Notes: generated from the letters alone by a model not told the origin. Shown: positions 1-6,592, numbered from the stretch's first letter. The stretch is 64,000 nucleotides of DNA from Chitinophagales bacterium (GCA_023957245.1 JAMLHJ010000005.1:64309-128308), one strand, 5' to 3'. Translations and numbers: made by a program.

Positions 1-1
1 T

Positions 2-883
2 TTCTTGTACATGGAGGGTGGTAACGGGATCAAGTCTGAAACAGAAGAATTGGTGGACGGAATTGAAGTAGCACAGAATACATTGAAAAGAGAATTTGGC
101 GATGAATGGAAAAGCTATGTAGAGGCTGCGCTTGTGATGAAAGACGAGCATTCATTCGGTTTCTTTAAGGTAAAGAAAGGTTATGAATACAAAGGACACA
201 CATTTACAACCGGATACTATGCTCAGTTTTGGGGCAGGGGGGACGTTTATAAGGTGGAATCTGAGAAAATAAAGGAAGAAGTTAATTCCAAAAACTTGAT
301 TATGACTTTTAAAGAATATAGTGAAGGAGATTACCCTCATTTTATATTTGAAGATCAAGAAAGTAAAAAAGGATACGATTTTAGGTTTATTAGTGATAAT
401 AATTTAGGTAACCTACCAATTTTATTAGATGATGATGAGGCAAGTTTCGGATTAAAAGCAAATCCTAAATTTATTGGCAAATCCTTTAATGTGAACATTG
501 TTAAGAAAGAGGTCTTGGATATGGGTTTAGATGGCAATACTATAAAATCTAAAGAGTGGGTTATTGAGAAAATATCTTTGGCAAAAGTAGAAGAACCGAA
601 ATTGGATTTGCCATTTGTTGGCGAGAAATGGGGAGGTAATAGCCGAATCGGCTACTCTGTTACTATTAATGCAAATGGTAGTATAGTAATAAAAAGCAAT
701 TATTTAGGGAAAAACGAGTATATAATATATAGTGGAAGATATGCAAGTATTATGAAAGCAGAAGATTCAGAATATTACTATAAAATAGACAGCGATAAAA
801 TGACAGCAGTAGATAAAAAAGGAAATATAGAAACAGGTTGTGATGGGATTATAGACCAACCTTGTGAGTGGATTCTTAAATAA
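2..883 (+). CDS. Hypothetical protein, 5'-partial, with duplicated C-terminal domain
   Basis: The reading frame is open to the left edge. The first possible starts (TTG at 5, ATG at 11) are not followed by a signal peptide, so the true start probably lies outside the window. I do not recognise the family. Residues about 1-190 are a charged region without a known motif. A linker (KVEEPKLDLPFVGEK, about 194-208) leads into a C-terminal domain of some 90 residues ending in a CDG...QPCEWILK motif. That domain recurs in the gene at 3598-4278, and the linker recurs at 4292-4846. By analogy with its neighbours it is likely exported, perhaps as a lipoprotein. The next gene starts 13 bases downstream. 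Confidence 0.65.
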   Translation, partial: FLYMEGGNGIKSETEELVDGIEVAQNTLKREFGDEWKSYVEAALVMKDEHSFGFFKVKKGYEYKGHTFTTGYYAQFWGRGDVYKVESEKIKEEVNSKNLIMTFKEYSEGDYPHFIFEDQESKKGYDFRFISDNNLGNLPILLDDDEASFGLKANPKFIGKSFNVNIVKKEVLDMGLDGNTIKSKEWVIEKISLAKVEEPKLDLPFVGEKWGGNSRIGYSVTINANGSIVIKSNYLGKNEYIIYSGRYASIMKAEDSEYYYKIDSDKMTAVDKKGNIETGCDGIIDQPCEWILK

Positions 884-1010
884 GCTAAAAATAAATATGA
901 AACACGTTAATATTTTAATTACAATTATTGCATTGCTCACTTCTTGCGGACAAAGTGCAGATAACGAGAGCGTTACAGAAGCAACAGAGCCTGTAGCAGT
1001 TGTTGAAGAA
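611..1010 (+). repeat. Upstream copy of an imperfect tandem-array duplication
   Basis: This block covers the C-terminal domain of the first gene, its stop codon, the 13-base spacer and the signal peptide and linker of the next gene. The same order and closely similar bases are found at about 4009-4400. Around the stop codon and spacer the two copies are almost identical, including the non-coding bases. This shows duplication of DNA rather than protein convergence. Ends are approximate because similarity fades gradually. Confidence 0.8.
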
Positions 1011-1769
1011 AATGTTGTGTCAGAACTGGTAAAGGATGAATCGCAAAAGCTTTCAGACAACGAGATAGTAGATGAGGTCAGGCAGCTTATAACAAAGTTG
1101 AACAATTTTGAAAATCATAGTTATGACCTTAAAGAAGAAATTCCAATCACTATTGTTGACCTAAATAAAGATGGCTATAACGATGCGATTGCTGTAATCA
1201 GTGGAGGCAATACCTCCGGTGGGAATTCATGGCGTGAAGATGTTGCTGTTTTTCTCAACAATCCACAAACAAATAAAATAAAGCATTATAAAGACTTGAA
1301 CGTTAAAGATGATTTGAATTATAAAACAATAGATAAAATAGAATTATCGAATGATGGCAAGTTTATAGTACACGCAAGAGGCTACAAAGATGAGGACGGG
1401 CAATGCTGTCCTTCTTTGCCAATTAAACTGCATTTTGGATTTGTAGGAAACGAGCTAAAGAAAGCAGAAGAAATTTTTAGACCAGACAAGCTAATTGGCA
1501 AATATAGAAAATGGAATGCTGATATAAATCAATATGATTTAATAGAAGTAAAGAAAAGTAAAGTAAACTATGAAGTTGATTTTTGTGTAGAGTATCCAGA
1601 GGAATTAGAGTATGGTGCCTGTTGGAGCAGTACAATGAAAGTAAAGGGAAAAGAATTGTACAAAACACCAACAGAAGATGAAATTGGTTACTCTATTTTT
1701 TGGGAAAATGGAAAATTGGCAGTTAGGTGGTCTTACGATAATACAACTGAATACTACACAAAATTCTAA
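897..1769 (+). CDS. Lipoprotein with FG-GAP/calcium-loop-like motif
   Basis: The start is ATG 897, which gives a short SPII signal peptide: MKHVNILITIIALLTSC, with lipidation expected at Cys17. An earlier in-frame ATG at 864 would bury it. A linker of the array type (ATEPVAVVEENVVSE) follows. The mature part has DLNKDGYNDAI, an Asp-rich loop of the FG-GAP/VCBS kind, and a downstream QCCPS motif seen in other secreted proteins carrying such loops. Function is unknown; an outer-membrane or periplasmic lipoprotein is inferred. It belongs to the array, with 13 bases to the gene before and 11 to the gene after. Confidence 0.75.
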   Translation: MKHVNILITIIALLTSCGQSADNESVTEATEPVAVVEENVVSELVKDESQKLSDNEIVDEVRQLITKLNNFENHSYDLKEEIPITIVDLNKDGYNDAIAVISGGNTSGGNSWREDVAVFLNNPQTNKIKHYKDLNVKDDLNYKTIDKIELSNDGKFIVHARGYKDEDGQCCPSLPIKLHFGFVGNELKKAEEIFRPDKLIGKYRKWNADINQYDLIEVKKSKVNYEVDFCVEYPEELEYGACWSSTMKVKGKELYKTPTEDEIGYSIFWENGKLAVRWSYDNTTEYYTKF

Positions 1770-1780
1770 AACCAAGCAAC

Positions 1781-2314
1781 ATGAAAAGATTTTATCTCAT
1801 CACAATCATTGCACTGCTTGCATCTTGCGGACAAAGTACAGATAACGAGAGTATTGCAGAAGCAACAGAGCCTGTCGCAGTTGTCGAAAGAAACGTTGTA
1901 ACTGAGGAGGCACCAATACTTGAATTGATAAAGGAAGAACCGAAACTGAAAGTGGGTATCATCCCTGAATCTGAATTGCCACCAATAGGGGGAGAGTCTT
2001 ATAATTTTTCTGAAAAAGAAGTAGGTGAAAAAAGCCTGATATTTTATAACGCTACTGAAAATTCAGGAAAGATTATTATCAACAATAAACCCTATCGGTT
2101 AAATAAAATGAAGCAAACAGGAGATTCTGGATATGAAATTACCGGAAACGGAATACGTATCACTATAAATAAAATCAACTGGAAAACAATAGGTGAAGAT
2201 GAACCTGTTGGCGACTGTTCTATCGCAACTGTGCCCAGTATATCAATATCTACAGATGAAAGGGAAATTGAGTTGAAAAATGTCTTTCTCCTATATTGTT
2301 ACATAGGTGAATAG
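1781..2314 (+). CDS. Array lipoprotein with unique C-terminal domain
   Basis: The SPII signal peptide is MKRFYLITIIALLASC, with lipidation at Cys16. It is followed by a linker nearly identical to that of its neighbours (ATEPVAVVERNVVTEE) and a Pro/Lys/Glu-rich stretch. From about residue 60 the sequence is unrelated to the other members, with beta-rich character, one GNGIRITINK segment and two Cys near the C-terminus. No family is recognised. The gene ends 7 bases before the start of the next, so co-transcription is likely. Confidence 0.7.
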   Translation: MKRFYLITIIALLASCGQSTDNESIAEATEPVAVVERNVVTEEAPILELIKEEPKLKVGIIPESELPPIGGESYNFSEKEVGEKSLIFYNATENSGKIIINNKPYRLNKMKQTGDSGYEITGNGIRITINKINWKTIGEDEPVGDCSIATVPSISISTDEREIELKNVFLLYCYIGE

Positions 2315-2321
2315 TAAAAGT

Positions 2322-3596
2322 ATGAAAACATTAAAATCAGTATTTGCCCTTGTGTTAGCCTTTACGGCACAAATAGCAATGGCGCAATATTCCGGAATTT
2401 CAGACGAAGAAATTTTACTGAGAAAATGGAGATCTTATGGGCACTCTTTTGAAGACGAACAGGTAATAAAAAGATGGCTTTATGAATTTGATAAGAATAA
2501 TTATTCTTCTTATTCAAAGAATGATTTTCAGTTAAGAAGCAAAATGGATCAAACCAAAAAGAGTTTGGCTCAACGTTTTTCTAATCTCAAAAGCCCTGCG
2601 ATTTTTTATTATGAAACAAACAGGAATTTTGGTGCTTATGATTTTGACAAAGAAAAGTTTGCTTTTAAGCCTTTTAAAAATATAAATTTAGAAGCTACGT
2701 ATAACCTCTTTGCTCCGTTTAGTACTCAGGTTAACAATATGTTTTTTGGAGTATTAAAGATTGTAGATCTGGATTTTGTAGATGGTATAGCTATGAATAA
2801 AGATAAAGCAGAGCGTTTTTATAATAAGAGGTTAATAAAGAACTCCTATGGTCAAGACTACAACAAAAGAGTATATCTGAAAGTATATTACACTCACTCA
2901 TTGAATGATAACTTTCCTGTAAATACAAAAGATGGAGGACTTGGATATCTAAAAGGGAGTCCGGCATTGGTTCAGGCATTCGATGATAAGGATTACAGCA
3001 GCTTTATCTGCGAATGGTGGAGTCCGGTACTATCCAATGATATAAAACAACAGCTGATTTCTAACAGAATACCGAGAGAGGGCTATCAGAACAACGCTCC
3101 AATCGGAGGCTCTCCCAGATTGGATAATAACGCTGTATGGGGATTACTGTATCCGTACAACAATACATTTGACAGCAATAAGCGTTTGGTCAGAAAAGTA
3201 AAAAAGGGCAATGAATACAATCATTACAGGACAGAGATAGGAAAAACATTTTTTTATAGTGCCGGAAGTCAGCAAAAAGCTGTTGTCATTTTATTTTCTC
3301 ATTCCTCTGACAGCGGAGGCGATATATTCGAATGTCATGCTTGTCATCCTGAGTTTGATGTTGCGACATTTATTTATTCCAATGGAATATGGATAAAACA
3401 ACGCTTTATAGAAAATTGGAGTGGCGGATCCGGATCATGGGGTAGTCCGGATAAGATAACATTGGAATATTACAACAATAAAAACTGTCTGAAAGTATCG
3501 GGAAGTTATGGCAATCATGGAAGATCTGTGGAGTACATGAGCTATTATGATATTGAGACTTTAGACAAGATTGCAAGTTTCGAGAAGGAAAATTAA
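2322..3596 (+). CDS. Secreted hypothetical protein
   Basis: ATG 2322 gives an SPI signal peptide (MKTLKSVFALVLAFTAQIAMAQ). The GTG at 2307 would overlap the previous gene and displace it. The mature protein is about 400 residues, rich in Asn and Tyr, with no family I can name. Near residue 345 is a CHACH sequence that formally matches a CxxCH heme site, but one isolated copy is weak evidence. The C-terminal part is rich in Gly/Ser and aromatic residues. Unlike the surrounding genes it has no lipobox or array linker. The next gene starts one base after the stop codon. Confidence 0.65.
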   Translation: MKTLKSVFALVLAFTAQIAMAQYSGISDEEILLRKWRSYGHSFEDEQVIKRWLYEFDKNNYSSYSKNDFQLRSKMDQTKKSLAQRFSNLKSPAIFYYETNRNFGAYDFDKEKFAFKPFKNINLEATYNLFAPFSTQVNNMFFGVLKIVDLDFVDGIAMNKDKAERFYNKRLIKNSYGQDYNKRVYLKVYYTHSLNDNFPVNTKDGGLGYLKGSPALVQAFDDKDYSSFICEWWSPVLSNDIKQQLISNRIPREGYQNNAPIGGSPRLDNNAVWGLLYPYNNTFDSNKRLVRKVKKGNEYNHYRTEIGKTFFYSAGSQQKAVVILFSHSSDSGGDIFECHACHPEFDVATFIYSNGIWIKQRFIENWSGGSGSWGSPDKITLEYYNNKNCLKVSGSYGNHGRSVEYMSYYDIETLDKIASFEKEN

Positions 3597-3597
3597 T

Positions 3598-4278
3598 ATG
3601 AAACACGTCATTATTTTAATTACAGTCATTGGACTACTCGCGTCTTGCGTAGAAAATGCAGATAACGAGAACAGGGAAGAAGTTTCAGTTGTTGAAAAAG
3701 ATATTATTAAAGATACAACCATAGCACCAGAACAAATAACGGAATCAATTCAAGCAGAAAATACAAAAGGTCGCTATCGAATTACGGCAGAGAAAGTATT
3801 TTTCCATCATCAGCCTGATAAAAATACTATCAGGAAATCTTATGTGATAAGAAATGATGAAGTAGATGTGCAAATGCAATCAGGGGCTTTTGTTTTGGCA
3901 GTTTATACTTCGTCCAAAGGCAAAAAGACAGAGGGGTGGTTATTGTTAGATGATTTGCAACTTATAACAAACAAATTGAATACTTCTGAATTTAGAGAGG
4001 TTTCTTTACCATTTGTTGGCGAGAAATGTGGAGGTAATAGTAGAATGGGGTACTGTGTTACTATTAAAGCAAATGGCAGTGTAATTATAAGACACCTTTA
4101 CTTAGGAAGTGGGACAATAGAATATAACGGAAAATATGCAAGTATTATAAAAACAGAAAGTAAAGATTTTAATTATAAAATATACAGCGATAAAATGACA
4201 ATAGTAGATAGAAACGGAAATATAGAAACAGGTTGCGATGGGATTGCAGACCAACCTTGTGAGTGGATTCTTAAATAA
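3598..4278 (+). CDS. Array lipoprotein with the duplicated C-terminal domain
   Basis: ATG 3598 gives a lipoprotein signal MKHVIILITVIGLLASC (Cys17); the in-frame start at 3571 would overlap the previous gene. Residues about 55-125 resemble an SH3-like fold: they contain a short ligand-type region with YRITAEKVFFHHQPD and a Trp-containing GWLLLDDLQL, but this is inference. The last 90 residues (LPFVGEKCGGNSR ... QPCEWILK) are paralogous to the end of the first gene in the window. Here two extra Cys (in GEKC and GYC) appear that the first copy lacks. Confidence 0.7.
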   Translation: MKHVIILITVIGLLASCVENADNENREEVSVVEKDIIKDTTIAPEQITESIQAENTKGRYRITAEKVFFHHQPDKNTIRKSYVIRNDEVDVQMQSGAFVLAVYTSSKGKKTEGWLLLDDLQLITNKLNTSEFREVSLPFVGEKCGGNSRMGYCVTIKANGSVIIRHLYLGSGTIEYNGKYASIIKTESKDFNYKIYSDKMTIVDRNGNIETGCDGIADQPCEWILK

Positions 4279-4400
4279 GCTAAAAACAAATATGAAACAC
4301 ACCATTTTTATAATTACAATCATTGCACAACTTGCTTCTTGCGGACAAAATGCAGATATCGAGAACATTGCAGAAGCAACAGAGCCTGTCGCAGTTGTCG
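4009..4400 (+). repeat. Downstream copy of the array duplication
   Basis: This is the second copy of the block at about 611-1010: C-terminal domain, stop codon, 13-base spacer, then ATG and signal peptide of the next lipoprotein. Conservation of the non-coding spacer supports recent duplication or gene conversion within the array. Confidence 0.8.
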
Positions 4401-4846
4401 AAAGAAACGTTGTAACTGAGGAGGTGATTCCAGTGCCTGAACCAATAAAGGAAGAATCGCCACAGTCAAAAGTAGAAGAACCGAAATTAGATTTGCCGTT
4501 TGTGGGGAAGAAAGAATTTGAAACAATGCCCGGAATTTCAGGTAGAGGAACACCACAAAAGTATATTGAAATAATGAACAACGGAGATGTCTATTTTGGA
4601 TTTGTACAAGAAAATCAGGCGGATAATAGTATAACTAAAGAAAGGTATTACTCAGGAAAGTTTACAACATATATGAAGTCTGTTTTTAAGAAATGGGGAA
4701 ATGAAGTCAATTATTATAAAATCACCAAAGACAAAATCTATGAAGTTGATAAAAACAACAAACAACTTACCGGAATGGAATGTTGCCGTTACTACGATAA
4801 TGTTGACTTAGAAGAAGAATGCCTTTGTGTCGACAAATTCGATTGA
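4292..4846 (+). CDS. Array lipoprotein, chimeric linker
   Basis: ATG 4292 gives MKHTIFIITIIAQLASC with lipidation at Cys17. The linker looks composite: its first part (ATEPVAVVERNVVTEE) matches the gene at 1781. The following part (KVEEPKLDLPFVG) matches the first gene of the window. The C-terminal domain is again different, with a GTPQKYIEIMNNGDVYFG segment and five Cys in the last 30 residues, two adjacent. It looks like a recombinant member of the family. Function is unknown; a cell-envelope location is inferred from the lipobox. Confidence 0.7.
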   Translation: MKHTIFIITIIAQLASCGQNADIENIAEATEPVAVVERNVVTEEVIPVPEPIKEESPQSKVEEPKLDLPFVGKKEFETMPGISGRGTPQKYIEIMNNGDVYFGFVQENQADNSITKERYYSGKFTTYMKSVFKKWGNEVNYYKITKDKIYEVDKNNKQLTGMECCRYYDNVDLEEECLCVDKFD

Positions 4847-4896
4847 AATAAATAAAACACTGTTATTCATTTATTTAACTCAGAAAGCTAACAAGA

Positions 4897-5294
4897 ATGA
4901 TGGAAACAATTCCCATCACAATCATTACACTGTTTGCATCTTGCAGCCAAAATGCAGATAACGAGAACATTGCAGAAGCAACAGAACCTATCACTGTTGT
5001 CTAAGGAAACGTTGCAGCTGAAGACTCAACAATGTCTGAAGCTGTTGAAGCAGAAGATATAGTACCTGAGCAACTGACTGTAATATTAGAGCAACTGAGT
5101 ACCAAAGATGAATTAAGGAATGTGTATTTCAAAAAATTAAAGGAGACATTTGATAAAAAGATAAACAAAAAATTAAAAATCTGACGGCTGATGACTTTAT
5201 GACCTATGAAGGTAAATATATTGAGGAATGGCTATCTGAAGTTGCTTTTCAGGTCTCAACTTGCCGATTAAAAAAGGTCTCAAAAGAGGTTTAA
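4897..5294 (+). pseudogene. Decayed array lipoprotein (nonsense codon plus frameshift)
   Basis: From ATG 4897 the frame reads a signal peptide ending in FASC, then QNADNENIAEATEPITVV. At 5002 a TAA replaces the GAA present at the matching place in the intact copies (one base change). The same frame then stays open to a TGA at 5182. From about 5172 a neighbouring frame carries a coding-like continuation (KNLTADDFMTYEGKYIEEWL) that ends at 5294. This indicates a second lesion, an indel in the A-rich run at 5164-5179. It is the last member of the array. Confidence 0.75.
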
Positions 5295-5353
5295 AACCCT
5301 AACTTCGCCATTAATTATCCCCTTCTAATTGTTTTTCTAGTGTATTGAATGTT

Positions 5354-6592
5354 CTAATCCTTGCCTGGCACAATAGAAGACAGTTGATTCATTGCTCTAT
5401 GAGCGGGTAGCCATGACATGACCAAACTGATGAAAATAATTACAAAAACAATTAAAATGATATCTGTACGATAAATTTCAACTGGATAATATTCTATCAT
5501 GAAGGAGGTGCCTGGCATCTTGATAAGACCAACATTTATCTGTAAAAGACAAAATCCAAGTCCTATCACTAGTCCCGATATGGCTCCTAATAATGAAATC
5601 AATAAACCTTCTATCAAAAAGATATTTCTTATAGTATTTCTATTCGCACCCAATGCAATTAAAGTAGCAATATCTTGTTTTTTCTCAATTACTAACATAG
5701 AGAGAGAACTGATGATATTGAATGCTGCTATTAGAACTATAAAACTCAAAATCGTAAAAACCGCCCACTTTTCTGTGCGCATGACCTTATAAAGTGTTTC
5801 GTTCTGTTCGTATCTCGTCTTGATAATAAAATCTTTTCCCAATGATTGAGCTAATTGTTTTTTAACAGCATCAGGATTTGTCATAGAACGAAGTCTGATT
5901 TCTATCTTAGAAATTTTATTGCCTGCTCCCATTAAATTCTGAGCAAAATCAATAGGCACCAATATATAATTATCATCAAAATCTTGTTGGACAGAAAAAG
6001 TTCCTTGAGCATATATCTGACTATTTCGAAATGCATTGGCAACATCACTCACATTGGACTTATCATTACGAGGTAAATACAGATTAAGTAAAGTATTGGG
6101 TAGGTTGAGATTAACTCCTAATTTATAAGCAACACCCACACCTAATACAGCCAATGGGACATCTTCTTCATACAATTTTGAATTTCCGCTATAAATATGA
6201 TCCAACAATTCCCAGACGACTTCATAGTAGTTTTGATCTACACCTTTCATAGTGAAAATATGCTGCCTTCCTCCATATTCAGCCAGTACATTTTCTTCTA
6301 TCACCTGAGAATAACTGATGATATTTTCATTGTTTTCTAATAGTTGAAGGATATTTTCTTCTGGAACAAAAAATTTCCCTTCGGCAGGTTGTATCAATAA
6401 GTCTGTATAAAATACTCGATAAAGAGATTTGACTAAGTCTTCAAAACCATTAAATGTGGACATGACAATAATCAATGCTGCAGCTCCTATTGCCATTGCA
6501 AAAGCTGTCACCATCGAAATTACATTAATCACTCTGGTAGATTTGCGAGAGAAAAGATATCTTCTCGCTATGGAAAGAGCGGGAAATCTCAT
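5354..6592 (-). CDS. FtsX/LolC-E family ABC transporter permease
   Basis: 412 residues. The topology is that of the MacB/LolCE class: one N-terminal membrane helix (about 22-45), a periplasmic domain of some 220 residues, then three helices (about 276-300, 325-350, 373-395) forming the FtsX domain. In Bacteroidota such permeases are usually annotated as lipoprotein-releasing (LolC/E-like). That fits an organism with many lipoproteins, but the cognate ATPase is not in this window. It lies 11 bases downstream of rbfA, so the two are likely co-transcribed. Confidence 0.85.
   Translation of the reverse strand: MRFPALSIARRYLFSRKSTRVINVISMVTAFAMAIGAAALIIVMSTFNGFEDLVKSLYRVFYTDLLIQPAEGKFFVPEENILQLLENNENIISYSQVIEENVLAEYGGRQHIFTMKGVDQNYYEVVWELLDHIYSGNSKLYEEDVPLAVLGVGVAYKLGVNLNLPNTLLNLYLPRNDKSNVSDVANAFRNSQIYAQGTFSVQQDFDDNYILVPIDFAQNLMGAGNKISKIEIRLRSMTNPDAVKKQLAQSLGKDFIIKTRYEQNETLYKVMRTEKWAVFTILSFIVLIAAFNIISSLSMLVIEKKQDIATLIALGANRNTIRNIFLIEGLLISLLGAISGLVIGLGFCLLQINVGLIKMPGTSFMIEYYPVEIYRTDIILIVFVIIFISLVMSWLPAHRAMNQLSSIVPGKD

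What the first reader, a model, noticed from the sequence alone, without database searches (positions are those of the whole stretch)
1..5294. Modular lipoprotein array with shuffled parts
Four intact genes and one decayed copy share a lipoprotein signal and an acidic linker (ATEPVAVVERNVVTEE type) but have different C-terminal domains. The gene at 4292 joins linker pieces from two neighbours, and one block (C-domain, stop, spacer, next signal peptide) is duplicated at about 611 and 4009. Such N-conserved, C-variable arrays are known for immunity-protein and surface-antigen loci. Which applies here is open. The array starts before the window, so its left neighbours may hold a toxin or effector.
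Basis: partly seen in the sequence, partly recalled or inferred. Interest (0 to 1): 0.6.

Follow-up and report, generated by a model that had tools for sequence, protein, structure and literature searches.

The report
Mosaic lipoprotein operon behind a protease
A stretch of chromosome that this bacterium's close relatives lack carries a run of small membrane-anchored proteins built by copying and mixing each other's parts; they probably bind or block something in the cell envelope, but what they act on is not known.

Summary
Four intact lipoprotein genes (897-1769, 1781-2314, 3598-4278, 4292-4846) and one broken copy (4897-5184, stop at 5002) share a signal-plus-linker module. A block running across a gene boundary (C-domain, stop, spacer, next signal, linker) is duplicated: 607-1018 against 4005-4413, 82% over 412 bp, E 2e-117. 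Gene 4292 is a mosaic of neighbouring pieces. The run is the tail of a tightly packed operon inside an 11.5 kb segment that the nearest congener lacks. To the left lie another lipoprotein and a 609-aa lipoprotein with papain-family (C1) protease and FISUMP domains: an exported enzyme, but no toxin with a delivery domain. Three genes share an NlpE/lipocalin-like barrel whose relatives stand alone in Chryseobacterium; gene 897 looks weakly like XAC2610/PliI-type inhibitors of wall-cutting enzymes. No immunity family matches, and no T6SS sheath gene (VipB) was found. Best reading: a lineage-specific set of outer-membrane lipoproteins diversified by segmental duplication and recombination, most likely envelope-protective binders or inhibitors. 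A protease-inhibitor operon is a serious rival. Module exchange between strains could not be tested.

The parts
1..883 (+). 3' part of a 356-aa lipoprotein (P3; begins 188 bases left of the window, C19:64121). N-terminal ~230-aa domain of unknown kind, C-terminal NlpE-like domain
578..883 (+). NlpE-like C-domain of P3 (with linker AKVEEPKLDLPFVG)
   Evidence: 64% identical to the C-domain of gene 3598; Pfam NlpE E 0.0017, below cut-off
607..1018 (+). copy 1 of the block that straddles a gene boundary (C-domain, stop, spacer, next signal, linker)
   Evidence: 412 bp, 82.3%, E 1.9e-117 with 4005-4413
897..1769 (+). lipoprotein g2, 290 aa: shared signal and linker, then a domain with a DLNKDGYND calcium-type loop and CCPS motif (weak XAC2610/PliI-like), then a second unknown domain
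   Evidence: NCBIfam NF047539 E 0.0024 whole protein, 0.00023 domain alone, below cut-off; 4QTQ E 0.017 by profile
1781..2314 (+). lipoprotein g3, 177 aa: shared signal and linker, unknown C-domain
   Evidence: no relatives of the C-domain found
2322..3596 (+). g4, 424 aa: secreted, not a lipoprotein; DUF4852 at residues 45-169
   Evidence: Pfam PF16144 E 1.3e-10
3598..4278 (+). lipoprotein g5, 226 aa: shared signal with diverged linker, a module also found at the C-termini of protein kinases in other Bacteroidota, then the NlpE-like C-domain
4005..4413 (+). copy 2 of the boundary-straddling block
4292..4846 (+). lipoprotein g6, 184 aa: mosaic signal and linker, NlpE/lipocalin-like C-domain
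4463..4843 (+). C-domain of g6, predicted beta-barrel
   Evidence: AlphaFold2 pLDDT 77, pTM 0.70; best folds 3LHN lipoprotein and E. coli NlpE
4897..5184 (+). decayed copy: signal and linker, TAA at 5002-5004, unrelated tail
1..5354 (.). right part of an ~11.5 kb segment (C19:58175-69662) absent from the nearest congener
   Evidence: flanks are contiguous in G001 with ~30 bp between

Best explanation
This is the tail of a lineage-specific operon of lipoproteins that grew by segmental duplication and recombination. Shown: a lipid-anchor cassette (signal, Cys, acidic linker) is repeated in front of different small domains; one copied segment spans a gene boundary, so the copying joined the tail of one gene to the head of the next; gene 4292 then has a linker that matches gene 1781 rather than gene 897, as an overwrite would leave. 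Inferred: the proteins are exported, lipidated, sit in the outer membrane and, lacking the known surface-export motif, face the periplasm, where their domains bind and block or buffer envelope-damaging enzymes (wall hydrolases or proteases). That is, they work like immunity or lysozyme-inhibitor lipoproteins without being shown to belong to any such family. The target is not known.
For: Duplication and mosaic structure. Operon-like packing, 1-13 bp between genes from P2 to g6. Segment absent from the congener. NlpE/lipocalin-like barrel for the P3/g5/g6 C-domain: the profile reaches true NlpE-domain lipoproteins, and the predicted model matches NlpE and lipocalin-like lipoproteins. g2 and its relatives give XAC2610-related as a repeated weak curated match (3 of 4 domains on their own), and the profile finds the XAC2610 structure at E 0.017; XAC2610 is a lipoprotein that blocks a wall-cutting effector and shares its fold with PliI and Tsi1 (PMC10933484). 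dN/dS of the duplicated C-domain pair is 0.66 against 0.29-0.59 for signal/linker pairs, all below 1, so the frames are under some constraint (few sites, rough).
Against: All function calls are below curated cut-offs or rest on fold similarity, which shows no function. The XAC2610 match centres on a calcium-type loop also found in integrin FG-GAP repeats. The closest relatives of the g6 domain are single secreted proteins at a fixed place in Chryseobacterium, with no toxin beside them. No T6SS sheath (VipB) in the genome.
Confidence: 0.35

Rival explanations
1. Protease-inhibitor operon: the lipoprotein papain-family protease at the head of the operon is held in check by the downstream lipoproteins, as Bacteroides C10 proteases are paired with staphostatin-like inhibitors of lipocalin-like fold.
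For: The leader (C19:61589-63418) has a Peptidase_C1 domain with Gln, Cys, His and Asn of the papain site in place as read from the sequence (QGREGSC, GNHAMVIMGYD, NSWG), is a lipoprotein, and is followed by the run on the same strand. The barrel domain resembles lipocalin-like folds. In B. fragilis the proteases and inhibitors are co-transcribed, several are predicted lipoproteins, and two protease genes sit on genomic insertions (PMC2873492).
Against: 112 bp separate the protease gene from the start taken for P2, and in congener G002 the P2 relative sits next to a lipase-FISUMP protein instead. No sequence link to staphostatin was shown. C1 is not C10. So many different domains for one protease would be excessive.
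Confidence: 0.2
2. A lineage-specific set of NlpE-type envelope sensors or housekeeping lipoproteins that expanded by near-neutral duplication, with no shared target.
For: The g6 C-domain family occurs as single envelope proteins; the last copy is already a pseudogene; no recombinase or toxin nearby.
Against: Four intact frames are kept with dN/dS below 1, and the genes are packed as one operon.
Confidence: 0.25
3. Surface antigen or phase-variable array in which modules are swapped to change the exposed protein.
For: Conserved N-part and variable C-part; recombination within the locus.
Against: The lipoprotein genes are intact and packed as one operon, with no silent cassettes apart from the decayed copy, no invertase and no long inverted repeats. 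Residues after the lipid Cys (GQSADNES type) do not fit the known export signals with acids close to the Cys. The export signal of this order is not known, so this is not decisive.
Confidence: 0.1
4. True polyimmunity locus: a bank of immunity genes against toxins of rivals.
For: Tandem, co-directional, heterogeneous domains in one operon without a toxin partner, as described for polyimmunity loci (PMC3482391).
Against: None of the known immunity families is matched; in that survey only one immunity family was a lipoprotein.
Confidence: 0.1

Closest known systems
NlpE N-terminal domain (PF04170), E. coli NlpE
   Same: Small lipocalin-like barrel behind a lipoprotein signal; profile of the g6/P3/g5 domain reaches true NlpE-domain lipoproteins
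   Different: Below Pfam cut-off in all window proteins; NlpE has a second (OB-fold) domain and a fixed Cpx role (from general knowledge)
XAC2610 / PliI / Tsi1 type inhibitors of wall hydrolases
   Same: g2 has a weak but repeated match, a lipoprotein anchor and a calcium-type loop
   Different: No effector partner next to it; extra C-terminal domain; score under the curated cut-off
Bacteroides C10 protease with staphostatin-like inhibitor genes (bfp/bfi)
   Same: Papain-like lipoprotein protease followed by small exported proteins, on a variable genomic segment (PMC2873492)
   Different: Different protease family, many more downstream genes, no sequence similarity shown
Heterogeneous polyimmunity loci
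   Same: Run of small genes with different domains in one operon (PMC3482391)
   Different: No known immunity family; proteins are lipoproteins sharing one anchor cassette

Membership tests
NlpE (PF04170) | Score above the Pfam gathering cut-off (22 bits) | tested here: not met
   P3 19.6 bits, g5 13.8 bits, g6 none
NlpE (PF04170) | NlpE/lipocalin-like barrel fold | tested here: inconclusive
   Model of moderate confidence; best matches 3LHN Z 7.2 (rmsd 4.2, 99 aligned) and NlpE Z 5.8 (rmsd 4.7, 95 aligned)
XAC2610/PliI-type inhibitor | Score above NCBIfam NF047539 cut-off (35 bits) | tested here: not met
   g2 18.3 bits whole, 21.6 bits domain
XAC2610/PliI-type inhibitor | Inhibitory loop entering the active site of a wall hydrolase | not testable with these tools
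   g2 model has pLDDT 39.5, unusable
Polyimmunity locus | Four or more tandem genes of recognised immunity families | tested here: not met
   No immunity family in Pfam, NCBIfam or PADLOC
Polyimmunity locus | Tandem co-directional operon without toxin partner | tested here: met
   Spacing 1-13 bp from P2 to g6, one strand; transcription itself not tested
Protease-inhibitor operon | Papain-like protease with catalytic residues present | tested here: met
   Peptidase_C1 E 2.3e-14; active-site motifs read in the sequence
Protease-inhibitor operon | Downstream product inhibits the protease | not testable with these tools
   needs biochemistry
Surface-exposed Bacteroidetes lipoprotein | Export signal with acidic residues close to the lipid Cys (K-(D/E)2, SDDDD or SDDFE) | tested here: inconclusive
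   GQSADNES, GQSTDNES, VENADNEN and GQNADIEN do not fit, but the signal of this order is unknown

The most novel reading that the evidence does not exclude
The locus is an inhibitor bank that grows by moving one lipid-anchor cassette in front of new envelope-inhibitor domains, through duplications that run across gene boundaries; that is, bacterial domain shuffling used to build envelope protection against many hydrolases.
Probability: 0.12. Interest if true: 0.65.

Novelty: new variant of a known kind. Interest (0 to 1): 0.35.

Why it matters
It is a readable case of domain shuffling in bacteria: the duplicated unit is not a gene but a segment across a gene boundary, and a later overwrite of one linker can be traced. 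If the domains prove to be inhibitors, it would show how envelope-protection genes are assembled from a reusable anchor.

Tried and rejected
Viral contigs and plasmids gave no relatives. The G036 hit to g6 lies inside an unrelated 222-aa reading frame and was dropped as chance. The structure of g2 without an alignment was unusable, so no fold search was run on it. Promoter scans: TANNTTTG matches around the island are at chance level, and sigma-70-like sites and terminators were no more frequent than in shuffles. No target-site duplication was seen at the island ends and no tRNA. The PADLOC match of g5 (E 0.005) covers mainly the linker and is taken as chance. Phage families gave nothing meaningful. 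Other FISUMP genes of the genus have no lipoprotein array beside them.

Full report
Location and context. The window lies at C19:64309-128308 of a 3.09 Mb genome. Sequence to the left was fetched (L005 = C19:50001-69700). Reading rightwards on one strand are: a 609-aa lipoprotein with a papain-family (C1) protease domain and a FISUMP domain (L005 11589-13418), a small lipoprotein (P2, L005 13531-14109), a 356-aa lipoprotein (P3, cut by the window start), then g2 (window 897-1769), g3 (1781-2314), g4 (2322-3596), g5 (3598-4278), g6 (4292-4846) and a decayed copy (4897-5184). From P2 to g6 the gaps between genes are 1-13 bp, so they look like one operon; the protease gene ends 112 bp upstream of the start taken for P2. 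Transcription was not tested.

The observation. Self-comparison of window 1-5300 confirms each claim. The boundary-straddling block 607-1018 / 4005-4413 aligns over 412 bp at 82.3% (E 1.9e-117). The signal+linker module recurs in g2, g3, g6 and the decayed copy, and in a diverged form in g5. A windowed alignment shows g6 is a mosaic: spacer and first codons match g2 at 92-100%, the linker matches g3 at 95-100%, and the start of the C-domain (SKVEEPKLDLPFVG) matches P3 (47 bp, 89%). So at least one segmental duplication and at least one later overwrite, most simply gene conversion, are needed (inference). The decayed copy has TAA at 5002-5004 within the linker.

Age and origin. Searching 60 related genomes with g6 and with P3 found no array in the two congeners or the rest of the family. 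In congener G001 the genes that flank the segment are directly adjacent, with about 30 bp in place of 11.5 kb (L005 8175-19662). Congener G002 lacks the array as well, but on contig 34 it has a P2 relative (56% identical) next to a FISUMP lipoprotein whose enzyme domain is a lipase rather than a protease, and a relative of the 496-aa secreted protein of the island. No recombinase, tRNA or target duplication was seen at the ends. Whether this is a gain here or a loss in G001 is not proved; absence from the searched members of the family favours gain.

What the domains are. The C-domain shared by P3, g5 and g6 scores just under the cut-off for the NlpE N-terminal domain in P3. A profile of it reaches lipoproteins that are clear NlpE members, and 78 relatives of the g6 form were found in named genomes, almost all Chryseobacterium, mostly as single exported proteins of about 137-140 aa, usually (60 of 74) beside the same lipoprotein gene. 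A model of the g6 domain built with these relatives (pLDDT 77, pTM 0.70) matches small lipoprotein barrels and NlpE best (Foldseek E about 0.01; Z 7.2 and 5.8). These values are modest and show a fold, not a function. g2 carries a domain with a DLNKDGYND loop and a CCPS motif; it and its relatives give XAC2610-related as a repeated curated match, all under cut-off, and a profile of the four finds the XAC2610 structure 4QTQ at E 0.017 alongside integrin FG-GAP loops. XAC2610 is a lipoprotein that blocks a wall-cutting effector and shares its fold with PliI and Tsi1 (PMC10933484). g4 has DUF4852. g3 and the first domain of P3 have no recognised relatives. The first domain of g5 has weak relatives in another lipoprotein and at the C-termini of protein kinases and no Pfam match.

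Function. The proteins carry lipoprotein signals. Residues after the Cys do not fit the surface-export motifs described for Bacteroidetes (PMC5080379), so a periplasm-facing place is more likely, though the motif of this order is unknown. Small domains on lipid anchors facing the periplasm, one of them resembling wall-hydrolase inhibitors, point to envelope-protective binding or inhibition as the most likely work (inference). The leading mechanistic rival is that the downstream proteins control the operon's own protease, as in the Bacteroides C10 protease loci, where staphostatin-like (lipocalin-like) inhibitors are co-transcribed with lipoprotein proteases, some on genomic insertions (PMC2873492). 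Near-neutral expansion of NlpE-type lipoproteins is the leading plain rival. A true polyimmunity locus is less likely since no known immunity family is present, and a surface-antigen array lacks inversion machinery. The own genome has no hit to the T6SS sheath family VipB, so a T6SS of its own is unlikely to be the partner.

Verdict. Real, well-supported mosaic structure; ordinary parts (envelope lipoproteins); uncertain function. Interest moderate.

Noticed in passing
L005 4684-5923 (C19:54684-55923): A second small insertion relative to congener G001: a 258-aa protein of unknown kind followed by a PIN-domain protein, which looks like a toxin-antitoxin type pair.
   Followed up: partly
L063 1076-17711 (congener G002, contig 34): A related locus with a P2-like lipoprotein, a lipase-FISUMP lipoprotein, a 1032-aa Tubulin_2 (PF13809) protein and a large PKD-repeat M43 metalloprotease; FISUMP is joined to different enzymes in different congeners.
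   Followed up: partly
L038, L039, L041, L048: Relatives of the P2 lipoprotein sit among what look like conjugation genes in other members of the order, so P2 may travel on conjugative elements.
   Followed up: no
L005 8501-9763: The left end of the island holds an Xre-type regulator and a small exported protein (possibly an outer-membrane barrel) before the operon.
   Followed up: no
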